From: Butyrivibrio sp.
GTDB taxonomy: Bacteria; Bacillota_A; Clostridia; Lachnospirales; Lachnospiraceae
NCBI RefSeq assembly: GCF_024699075.1
Contig: NZ_JAILQF010000340.1
Coordinates: 1-41,836 of the forward strand
Direction of reading: 5' to 3'
Length of the DNA: 41,836 nucleotides
Shown: positions 33,583 through 34,956 of the stretch, in pieces
How positions within the stretch are numbered: position 1 is the first letter of the stretch
How the letters are laid out: each line of letters starts with the position of its first letter
Position numbers and translations under genes: made by a program
Notes under the pieces: model-generated
Databases searched by the model: none
Told to the model about the DNA's origin: nothing
Seen by the model: only the letters and a program-made list of their open reading frames with translations

Positions 33583-34068
33583 ATGGATGCACTCAGAGAT
33601 ACACAGGATATTGGAGAAATAATTCAATATATTATCATCAAGCTTGCTGACGAGCAGTATGGAATCGATATCAAGTATATCGATAATATTGTAAGGATGC
33701 AGAATATCACAAGAGTTCCTAAGGTTGATGACTATTTTAAGGGCGTTTTGAATATTCGAGGCGTTATCGTTCCTGTAATGAGCATTCGTGTTCTTATGGG
33801 AATGGAAGAGGATGTCATCACCAACAAGAGCCGTATCATTATCCTTAAGATCGGCGATGAAGGTGAACTTCTTGGAATTATTGTAGATCAGGTCAATCAG
33901 GTACTTAATATTGGTGCCGCTAATATTGATAAGCTCTCCTTTGATGAAAAGACAAAGAAGAGCAACGGCAAGTTTATATCAGGCGTTGGTAAGTATGAGG
34001 GCGGACTCGTATCAATACTTGACCTTACAGCACTTGATCCTGAAACTGCAAAAGAAAAGAAAGAATAA
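33583..34068 (+). CDS. cheW: CheW, chemotaxis coupling protein
   Basis: CheW links CheA to receptors. The 161-residue protein is a single CheW domain with the expected YGIDIKYIDNIVRMQNITRV start, VDDYFKGVLNIRGVIVPVM core and DEGELLGIIVDQVNQVL segment. The ribosome site GGAGG lies within the last cheA codons. A GA-rich hairpin and a duplicated palindromic element follow it. Confidence 0.96.
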   Translation: MDALRDTQDIGEIIQYIIIKLADEQYGIDIKYIDNIVRMQNITRVPKVDDYFKGVLNIRGVIVPVMSIRVLMGMEEDVITNKSRIIILKIGDEGELLGIIVDQVNQVLNIGAANIDKLSFDEKTKKSNGKFISGVGKYEGGLVSILDLTALDPETAKEKKE

Positions 34069-34108
34069 CGATATAATATTAAAATTAAATTGAAAATGTG
34101 ATACTATT

Positions 34109-34140
34109 AAAGAGAGAAAGTTTTAACACCTTCTCTCTTT
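34109..34140 (+). terminator. hairpin after cheW, possible terminator
   Basis: AAAGAGAGAA pairs perfectly with TTCTCTCTTT (10 bp) around a 12-base loop, 40 bases after the cheW stop. The 3' arm itself ends in TTT, with A-rich sequence before it. GC content is low, so it may act as a weak terminator or RNA end-protecting stem. Confidence 0.5.
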
Positions 34141-34144
34141 AGTA

Positions 34145-34258
34145 GTACATGGAATTACATCCATGTAATTCCAAACATGTACGGTTACATCCTGTAACCG
34201 CGTACATAGAAATACATCCATGTATTTCTAAACATGTACAGTTACATCCTGTAACTGA
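34145..34258 (+). repeat. duplicated 57-bp element of covarying hairpins in the cheC leader
   Basis: Two tandem 57-base units (34145-34201 and 34202-34258) each encode two hairpins: a ~9-10 bp stem (unit positions 7-16 with 19-28) and a 7-bp stem (39-45 with 49-55). The units differ at seven sites; six of these are three compensated base pairs (7-28, 11-24, 39-55). Alternating GTACAT and ATGTAC words flank each stem and can pair with either neighbour. It lies between cheW and the cheC ribosome site. Confidence 0.9.
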
Positions 34259-34323
34259 GTACTTGTACAAAGAGTCGCTTTTTTGTTCCTTTCAGGGATT
34301 GTTTCAGATCAGGAGGATATGAT

Positions 34324-34956
34324 TTGGCGGATTTAAGTCTGGATGCTCTTTCCGAGCAGTATTATGATGTACTAAAGGAACTTGGTAATATCGGAGCAGG
34401 TAATGCTACTACAGCACTTGCACAGATGCTTGGTGCTAAGGTTGATATGTCAGTTCCCAGTGTAAGACTCCTTGAATTTAAGGATGTTGGCGATTGTATG
34501 GGTGGTGCGGATCAGATCATGGCCGGCATTTATCTTCGTATGGAAGGAGATGTTGACGGTTCTATCATGTTCCTTACCGGCCAGAAAGAAGCCAGGTATC
34601 TTGCTAATAAGCTTATAATGCAGGATAAACCTGAAGATGCAGAGTTTGATGAAATGGAACTTTCTGCATTAAAAGAAATTGGTAATATCATTACCGGTTC
34701 TTATCTTAATTCTCTTGCAACAATGACTAATTTGAAGATGATCCCTTCAGTTCCATACGTTGCTGTTGATATGGCAGGAGCAATCCTTTCCGTTCCGGCA
34801 ATTGAATTCGGTCTTATGGGCGATAAACTTCTTCTGATAGAGAATCGTTTTACTGACGATGTTCAGATAAGCGGTTATTTTATTCTTTTACCTGATATTG
34901 AAGGTTATAAGAAGATTCTCGGCTCCCTTGGTATTGATGTCTCTATGTTTGACTGA
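34324..34956 (+). CDS. cheC: CheC, CheY-P phosphatase
   Basis: CheC dephosphorylates CheY-P and is stimulated by CheD. The 210-residue protein starts at TTG 34324 behind AGGAGG seven bases upstream. Both phosphatase motifs are present: D15/E19/N22 (DVLKELGNIGAGNATTAL) and S114/E118/N121 (SALKEIGNIITGSYLNSL). The FliY CheC domain carries the same motifs, so this organism has two CheY-P phosphatases and no CheZ here. It is preceded by the duplicated hairpin element, which is part of its likely 5' leader if transcribed from cheW. Confidence 0.95.
   Translation: MADLSLDALSEQYYDVLKELGNIGAGNATTALAQMLGAKVDMSVPSVRLLEFKDVGDCMGGADQIMAGIYLRMEGDVDGSIMFLTGQKEARYLANKLIMQDKPEDAEFDEMELSALKEIGNIITGSYLNSLATMTNLKMIPSVPYVAVDMAGAILSVPAIEFGLMGDKLLLIENRFTDDVQISGYFILLPDIEGYKKILGSLGIDVSMFD

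What the first reader, a model, noticed from the sequence alone, without database searches (positions are those of the whole stretch)
34145..34268. Twice-repeated 57-bp element with compensated base-pair changes before cheC
Two adjacent 57-base units each form two hairpins. They differ at seven positions, and six of those form three exact compensations: unit positions 7/28 (G-C to A-T), 11/24 (T-A to A-T) and 39/55 (G-C to A-T); the seventh is in a bulge. Chance alone rarely gives this, so base pairing has probably been kept under selection or copied by a process that preserves palindromes. GTACAT/ATGTAC words at 34145, 34177, 34202, 34234 (and GTACTT at 34259) alternate, so each can pair left or right, giving mutually exclusive folds in the cheC leader. 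Possible roles: an RNA switch or stabiliser lowering or timing CheC/CheD relative to CheA/CheW, a repeated protein-binding site, or a palindromic mobile repeat. I cannot tell which from one locus.
Basis: seen in the sequence. Interest (0 to 1): 0.85.

Follow-up and report, generated by a model that had tools for sequence, protein, structure and literature searches.

The report
Stop-codon-hugging palindromic DNA repeat
The doubled 57-base hairpin in front of cheC is one copy of a short palindromic DNA repeat scattered through the genomes of a few Butyrivibrio, often just behind a gene's stop codon, whose paired arms change together in a way that points to DNA copying rather than to a cheC control RNA.

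Summary
In detail: two adjacent 57-nt units (34145-34258) differ at 7 positions, 6 of them forming three Watson-Crick compensations. It is not a cheC element but a dispersed repeat: 4 of 79 genomes of the genus carry it, 69-73 matches each, and 75 show none. Four relatives lack intact units at the cheW-cheC site. Across 179 distinct units the stems covary strongly, yet G-T wobbles do not exceed A-C mismatches (10 v 26 in 19 core pairs, 44 v 59 in all 22; tRNA control 17 v 1), so pairing seems kept at DNA level. Three of 135 arrays bear marks of palindrome copying. [quoted passage not shown] Closest known kind: REP elements, but without a GTAG tag or a RAYT gene found. Likely a new REP-like family; its mover is unknown.

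The parts
34145..34201 (+). unit 1 (57 nt): foot GTACAT, hairpin H1, foot complement ATGTAC, hairpin H2
   Evidence: CM R1 68.2 bits; R1 was built with this unit among 59
34202..34258 (+). unit 2 (57 nt), same layout, three compensated pairs different
   Evidence: (CM R1 77.6 bits; also in the model)
34145..34150 (+). foot X of unit 1 (GTACAT), complementary to 34177-34182
   Evidence: columns 1-6/33-38
34151..34172 (+). hairpin H1 of unit 1, loop in CATCCATG
   Evidence: columns 7-15/20-28
34177..34182 (+). foot complement X' of unit 1 (ATGTAC); can pair left or right
34183..34199 (+). hairpin H2 of unit 1, loop TCC
   Evidence: columns 41-47/51-57
34202..34207 (+). foot X of unit 2 (GTACAT)
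34208..34229 (+). hairpin H1 of unit 2
34234..34239 (+). foot complement X' of unit 2 (ATGTAC)
34240..34256 (+). hairpin H2 of unit 2
34259..34264 (+). partial foot GTACTT at the 3' end of the array (many arrays end in a partial further unit)
34102..34147 (+). neighbouring hairpin AAAGAGAGAA..TTCTCTCTTT of the cheW-cheC gap, seen in all five orthologous gaps; not part of the repeat
   Evidence: by eye

Best explanation
The finding is a two-unit array of a dispersed, REP-like palindromic DNA repeat found in high copy in a few Butyrivibrio genomes. Shown: many copies per carrier genome, tandem arrays, filled and empty orthologous sites, strong stem covariation, orientation with transcription, clustering at stop codons, no wobble excess. 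Inferred: the unit acts as single-stranded DNA hairpins; the compensated differences arise mainly because one arm is re-copied from the other (template switching in the hairpin), or because only perfectly paired copies spread, not because an RNA helix is selected. Any effect on cheC is incidental. By the E. coli REP precedent, copies within 15 nt of a stop codon may lower translation of the upstream gene; this copy, 76 nt from the cheW stop, should not.
For: Multi-copy: at E <= 1, 67 blast matches in G001 and 25 in G002, some of them opposite-strand shadows; CM: 4 of 79 genus genomes with 73, 73, 69 and 69 matches, only 70 candidates per genome being scored. Filled/empty sites in orthologous regions of five genomes, G001 covering only part (gene names by Pfam): cheW-cheC intact units only in the window; flhA-flhF only in G001; fliA 3' in G047, with a relic in G001. 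Covariation in 59 units: 93.5% of cells paired, 167 double-change cells, score 0.334 v shuffled 0.109, 0 of 500 shuffles reaching it; the weakest measure, further pair types, was reached by 12 of 500. DNA level: 179 units, 19 core pairs: 3144 WC, 10 GT/TG, 26 AC/CA, 45 other; all 22 pairs: 3435, 44, 59, 77, with 22 of the 44 G-T at the loop-closing pair 46/50. 13 tRNAs from the fetched loci: GU 17, AC 1 (Fisher p 4.8e-6 for core pairs, 4.5e-5 for all pairs). Copying marks: H2 loop TCC inverted to GGA in L170 against its orthologue L070; two L157 units with the right arm an exact 15-nt reverse complement of the left and no AAAC linker; L142 with the linker mirrored onto the left arm. Orientation 68 v 12 (p 1.2e-10), 60 v 11 after merging arrays with a shared upstream gene; 32 of 63 arrays between co-directional genes within 15 nt of the stop v 10.7 expected from uniform placement.
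Against: No mobilising enzyme identified: Y1_Tnp genes occur in 60 of 79 genomes; of the 18 in the four carriers 9 were inspected, and a unit lies near only one, about 1.1 kb away. Clear copying marks are few (3 of 135 arrays). Adjacent units in arrays (63 pairs) also show single changes: 48 WC-to-WC doubles, 2 other doubles, 56 singles in 22 pairs; 49 doubles v 37 singles in core pairs. Strand bias cannot be split from replication direction: 58 of 76 arrays lie on the leading-sense strand, and only 7 usable arrays adjoin lagging-strand genes. In G002 stop-codon clustering is not distinguishable from uniform (2 of 6 v 1.2). Oriented stop-codon clustering hints at a transcript- or translation-level cause that a pure DNA model does not explain. 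The tRNA control is small, one tRNA fits badly (it holds 5 of the 17 GU and the single AC), and its register was chosen to maximise pairs.
Confidence: 0.72

Rival explanations
1. A structured 3'-UTR/intercistronic RNA selected for its fold, placed behind stop codons to stall terminating ribosomes or protect mRNA ends; covariation reflects RNA selection.
For: Oriented with transcription 68 v 12; 52 of 96 within -9..+15 nt of the stop; strong covariation. REPs fewer than 16 nt from a stop codon downregulate translation in E. coli (as reported in PMC12306157, passages read).
Against: No wobble excess (10 GT/TG v 26 AC/CA core, 44 v 59 all pairs). Absent or broken at orthologous sites. 75 of 79 congeners show no match.
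Confidence: 0.2
2. A minimal single-strand transposable unit of IS200/IS605 style, moved in trans: X' is a guide word that base-pairs with the target/cleavage word X, so each copy matches its target.
For: At the 3' end of the PilZ gene the foot X overlaps the local last codons and stop (GCACCT in G001, TGACAT in G002, GTGAAT in G066), each with its complementary X'; the G001 flhA insert has TGAC on both sides where the empty G047 allele has one TGAC. One link between foot and H2 letters exceeds all shuffles (X2-H2_42). 58 of 76 arrays have the CATCC strand on the leading-sense strand, which I read as the lagging-strand template. Guide pairing in IS608 and TnpA-REP is described in PMC8266576 (passages).
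Against: Only 1 of 10 comparisons between foot and H1/H2 letters exceeds the shuffles, whereas an inherited guide should travel with the rest. No dedicated transposase found.
Confidence: 0.3
3. A cheC-specific riboswitch-like leader with mutually exclusive folds, as first suggested.
For: Alternating GTACAT/ATGTAC words allow left or right pairing.
Against: Many copies elsewhere in relatives' genomes; at this site the relatives have no intact unit: remnants in G066 and G047, nothing recognisable in G001 and G002 (by eye; no HMM match there). No Rfam match.
Confidence: 0.03
4. A CsrA-binding decoy: the complementary strand reads ACA-(U)GGA-UGU in both loops, like the CsrA consensus (recalled, Dubey 2005; not looked up).
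For: Loop letters: TCC in nearly all plus-strand loops, hence GGA on the minus strand.
Against: Arrays are mostly oriented so that mRNAs carry UCC, not GGA; antisense transcripts would be needed.
Confidence: 0.04

Closest known systems
REP / BIME elements (E. coli and other bacteria; GTAG- and CGTC-tagged superfamilies)
   Same: Short palindromes in dozens of copies or more per genome, mostly extragenic; some lie just behind stop codons and some supply a TAG stop to the ORF (PMC3733652, one passage read; PMC12306157, abstract and passages read).
   Different: 57-nt two-hairpin unit with a shared foot word, CATCC in both loops, no invariant GTAG or CGTC tag; foot letters vary and overlap host sequence at the sites compared; no RAYT-sized Y1 gene in the carriers (size criterion recalled).
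REPINs with RAYT transposases (PMC3116915, PMC2817692; seen in search listing only)
   Same: Non-autonomous repeat populations within a genome.
   Different: Units stand head to tail in arrays rather than as inverted REP pairs; the 18 Y1 matches of the four carriers have frames of 84-188 aa, and none of 9 inspected is flanked directly by units.
IS200/IS605 ends (guide-sequence targeting; PMC8266576 passages)
   Same: Single-strand hairpins plus a short complementary word next to a hairpin; strand bias.
   Different: No gene inside; left ends of the five resident copies looked at carry other hairpins (by eye; right ends not seen).
Template-switch hairpins (Monttinen & Loytynoja 2022, PMC8794818; abstract and start of introduction read)
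   Same: Compensated, multi-base arm changes in one step; perfect stems made by copying the other arm.
   Different: That work concerns RNA genes; here the process would act across a dispersed repeat family.

Membership tests
REP (repetitive extragenic palindromic) superfamily | High copy number of a short palindrome in one genome | tested here: met
   69-73 CM matches in each of 4 genomes, 70 candidates scored per genome
REP (repetitive extragenic palindromic) superfamily | Extragenic location | tested here: met
   Greedy ORF calls: 20 of 135 arrays lie inside a called ORF, 8 of 135 inside one of 300 nt or more; the window's own is flagged by a 174-nt ORF
REP (repetitive extragenic palindromic) superfamily | Invariant GTAG or CGTC tag at one end | tested here: not met
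   Foot words vary: GTACAT 61, -GACAT 32, GGACAT 15, GTACCT 9 and others of 179 distinct units
REP (repetitive extragenic palindromic) superfamily | Cognate RAYT (Y1 transposase) gene flanked by copies | tested here: not met
   18 Y1 matches in the four carriers, frames 84-188 aa; 9 of 18 inspected, none directly flanked by units, one unit about 1.1 kb away. The other 9 were not inspected; carriers' assemblies may be incomplete
REP (repetitive extragenic palindromic) superfamily | Mobilisation by a transposase shown | not testable with these tools
   needs experiment
IS200/IS605-derived MITE | Ends homologous to a resident IS | tested here: inconclusive
   Left ends of five resident copies carry other hairpins by eye; right ends not seen; no unit at 8 of 9 Y1 loci inspected
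IS200/IS605-derived MITE | Insertion next to a fixed target word | tested here: inconclusive
   Foot word overlaps local host sequence at the sites compared but differs between sites
Regulatory RNA family (Rfam) | Match to a described family | tested here: not met
   0 matches in the window at gathering score; no match to units in 13 loci at E <= 0.1
Regulatory RNA family (Rfam) | RNA-type covariation including G-U pairs | tested here: not met
   10 GT/TG v 26 AC/CA among 3225 core cells, 44 v 59 among 3615 cells of all 22 pairs; control 17 v 1
Regulatory RNA family (Rfam) | Conserved next to the same gene in relatives | tested here: not met
   0 of 4 relatives keep an intact unit before cheC

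The most novel reading that the evidence does not exclude
A self-templating mobile palindrome: at insertion the element rewrites one of its own arms to match the host sequence at the site, re-copies its stems during replication, and enters chromosomes at stop codons in step with transcription or translation, without a RAYT-type partner. Covariation, often taken as the best proof of functional RNA, would then be produced here by the mutation process itself.
Probability: 0.2. Interest if true: 0.82.

Novelty: new variant of a known kind. Interest (0 to 1): 0.57.

Why it matters
Covariation is treated as leading evidence for a functional RNA structure. This repeat family gives about 200 natural replicates (199 units) in which covariation is strong but lacks the wobble excess expected of RNA, together with a few orthologous copies showing loop inversion and arm re-copying. 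It could be a test bed for telling mutation-made covariation from selection-made covariation. It is also a candidate new REP-like family, with an unusual stop-codon address, in a rumen genus, and its mover is unknown.

Tried and rejected
cheC-specific RNA switch: rejected by multi-copy distribution and broken or missing orthologous copies. RAYT/REPIN membership: Y1_Tnp genes are widespread in the genus (60 of 79) and not visibly tied to units at 9 of 18 loci inspected. Relation to resident IS605-type left ends: none seen (right ends not reached). Rfam: nothing for the units. Phage origin: no match in phage records; no exact pattern match in viral contigs; CheC found no relative in viral contigs. 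Plasmids: one record, B. fibrisolvens NZ_CP146964.1, whose length equals G047 contig C2. Literature: searches 'Butyrivibrio + palindromic repeat' (39 papers; one listed, judged from titles and abstract starts only), 'Lachnospiraceae + REP element' (0) and 'Butyrivibrio + extragenic palindromic' (1, a tetracycline-resistance paper) showed no description of this repeat; most subscription papers are not held. A first DNA search of 61 genus genomes found 2 carriers and missed the two others because the sample did not include them. CsrA decoy: kept as an unlikely rival. Failed analyses that were replaced: the tRNA control used a wrong register (redone; one search gave nothing); the palindrome scan had a regex fault (redone). 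Rows dropped: pairs 1/38, 40/56 and 46/50 from the 'core' counts (all-pair counts); 10 of 69 regex units were left out of alignment A1: not units, partial copies, or near-duplicates.

Full report
Observation. The two 57-nt units at 34145-34201 and 34202-34258 are real. Their seven differences include three exact Watson-Crick compensations; a simulation gives about 2e-5 for this by chance (7 of 400,000). Each unit is foot X (GTACAT), hairpin H1 (loop within CATCCATG), linker AAAC, foot complement X' (ATGTAC), hairpin H2 (loop TCC). The next unit begins with X again, so X' can pair left or right.

Setting. The window is a flagellar/chemotaxis region; fliF, fliP, flhA, flhF, a PilZ/YcgR gene, cheB, cheA, cheW (33583-34068), cheC (34324-34956), cheD and a sigma factor (called fliA here) were checked by Pfam. 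No whole genome is held for it. CheC relatives led to an uncultured Butyrivibrio MAG (95%) and Butyrivibrio sp. MC2013 (85%); the other 13 of 15 loci were 60-66%.

Dispersed repeat. Searching the array by DNA at E <= 1 gave 67 matches in G001 (the MAG) and 25 in G002 (MC2013), some of them opposite-strand shadows, none in G003 and G004 and one weak in G005. A covariance model R1 from 59 units found it in 4 of 79 genomes of the genus (G001, G002, G047, G066), 69-73 matches each with 70 candidates scored per genome and strict filters; the other 75 gave none at E <= 0.001. Whether the four form one clade was not tested; their CheC proteins are 85-97% identical to the window's. G047 contig C2 has the length of a B. 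fibrisolvens plasmid record with a match at the same place. In two 400-kb stretches, chosen because they were known to hold copies, 15 units (E <= 0.0011) were found in G047 and 9 (E <= 2.3e-11) in G066. Of 348 genomes of the family, G001 and three others matched; the three have 1-3 distant relatives of the same architecture with other foot and stem letters, and one of these (L216) begins just behind a stop codon by eye. Only 15 candidates per genome were scored there, so weak relatives can be missed.

Empty and filled sites. Orthologous regions of the four genomes were laid beside the window; the G001 contig covers only part of it. cheW-cheC: intact units only in the window; by eye G066 has half a unit (ACATGGAAGTACATCC), G047 a rearranged remnant, G001 and G002 nothing recognisable. 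flhA-flhF: filled only in G001. fliA 3' end: filled in G047, relic in G001. fliP 3' end: filled in G047 only. PilZ-gene 3' end: filled in G001, G002 and G066, empty in the window and G047. At this last site the foot X overlaps the local last codons or stop in each species, and X' is complementary to it each time. In G001 the element's own TAG serves as the stop codon. At flhA the G001 insert is bounded by TGAC on both sides, where the empty G047 allele has one TGAC.

Position and orientation. 135 arrays (79 single, 40 double, 16 triple by nhmmer; G001 42, G002 12, G047 56, G066 24, window 1) were placed among greedy ORFs; 20 lie inside a called ORF, 8 inside one of 300 nt or more. Of 100 arrays with ORFs of 300 nt or more on both sides, 68 lie sense between co-directional genes, 12 antisense, 14 between convergent and 6 between divergent genes. 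Of 96 with a sense upstream gene, 52 begin -9..+15 nt from its stop (peak 1-3 nt), against 3 of 33 in the converse orientation; uniform placement would give 10.7 of 63 where 32 were seen. Merging arrays that share an upstream gene leaves 60 v 11, 44 of 85 and 2 of 31. By genome the excess is clear in G001, G047 and G066 (6 arrays) but not in G002 (2 of 6 v 1.2). If closeness to stops merely reflected harmlessness, antisense arrays should show it too. Replication direction is confounded: 58 of 76 arrays lie on the leading-sense strand, and for lagging-strand neighbours the counts are too small (5 sense, 2 antisense). The window's own array is 76 nt from the cheW stop, so it is not a stop-adjacent copy.

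How the stems change. In 59 units, 93.5% of cells pair, 13 of 22 pairs show double changes, and the covariation score is 0.334 against 0.109 in shuffles; the number of further pair types was reached by 12 of 500 shuffles. Over 179 distinct units, core pairs (leaving out 1/38, 40/56 and 46/50, which behave as ends) are 3144 WC, 10 GT/TG, 26 AC/CA and 45 other; in X and H1 alone 2384, 7, 10 and 15. With all 22 pairs: 3435, 44, 59 and 77, half of the G-T lying at the loop-closing pair 46/50. An RNA helix tolerates G-U well; 13 tRNAs from the fetched loci have 17 G-U to 1 A-C (one ill-fitted tRNA holds 5 of the 17 and the A-C; Fisher p 4.8e-6 core, 4.5e-5 all pairs). So single mismatches in the repeat look like neutral decay, while the double changes come from something Watson-Crick-exact. 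Linkage tests are mixed: letters are linked in 2 of 5 within-stem comparisons (11 with 13 in H1; 41 with 42 in H2) and in 1 of 16 between stems (foot position 2 with H2 position 42); 140 different combinations of foot, H1 and H2 letters occur in 199 units, so the copies are not a few clonal subfamilies. Between adjacent units (63 pairs) 49 core-pair differences are double and 37 single; over all 22 pairs 48 are WC-to-WC doubles, 2 other doubles and 56 single.

Copying marks. Arrays L070 (G001) and L170 (G047), which share their upstream gene, differ by inversion of the H2 loop, TCC to GGA, with that stem unchanged. L157 has two units whose right arm is an exact 15-nt reverse complement of the left, without the usual AAAC linker; L142 has the linker mirrored onto the left arm. 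L177 unit 2 joins the left arm type of unit 1 to the right arm type of unit 3 (by eye). Many arrays end in a partial unit, and some join an H1 left arm to an H2 right arm at the shared CATCC; 46 of 133 arrays have a direct repeat of 8 nt or more between their two ends, against 0 of 133 in a control window 137-177 nt past the array. Template switching is known to make and maintain hairpins (PMC8794818, abstract and start of introduction read).

What it works like. The best-supported reading is a REP-like dispersed palindrome that behaves as DNA hairpins and evolves by arm copying. E. coli REPs also occur close behind stop codons (446 of 4072 predicted REPs within 15 nt; an earlier study proposed that 260 of 496 act in translational regulation; both as reported in PMC12306157, passages read), and REPs can supply TAG stops (PMC3733652, passage read). 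It is not filed as a REP: the GTAG/CGTC tag is absent and no RAYT was found. How it moves, and why it sits at stops in sense orientation, remain open.

Limits. ORF calls are greedy, not curated. Copy counts are rough. Loci were fetched because they held matches. Transcription was not observable.

Noticed in passing
window 34102-34147: A strong hairpin (AAAGAGAGAA..TTCTCTCTTT) in the cheW-cheC gap is seen in all five orthologous gaps with variable loops and, by eye, paired foot changes; it is a better candidate for a cheC leader element than the repeat.
   Followed up: partly
L138:1920-2240; similar stretches in L044, L045, L139, L140, L144, L146, L158, L160, L166: A separate, roughly 320-bp long-inverted-repeat element recurs in G001 and G047 and carries the 57-nt unit inside one or both arms.
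   Followed up: partly
L181:1122-1285 (-): Clostridiales-1 RNA (RF01699), 67.9 bits, in a G066 locus that also holds an array.
   Followed up: no
L216, L217, L218, L220, L222: Low-copy relatives of the unit in three other genomes of the family, with different foot and stem letters but the same layout.
   Followed up: partly
H1 and H2 loops of the units, minus strand: The complementary strand reads ACA-UGGA-UGU / ACA-GGA-UGU, close to the recalled CsrA binding consensus; orientation makes it antisense to most neighbouring genes.
   Followed up: partly
L020, L168, L070: Truncated units joining the H1 left arm to the H2 right arm at the shared CATCC, apparently short-homology deletions.
   Followed up: no
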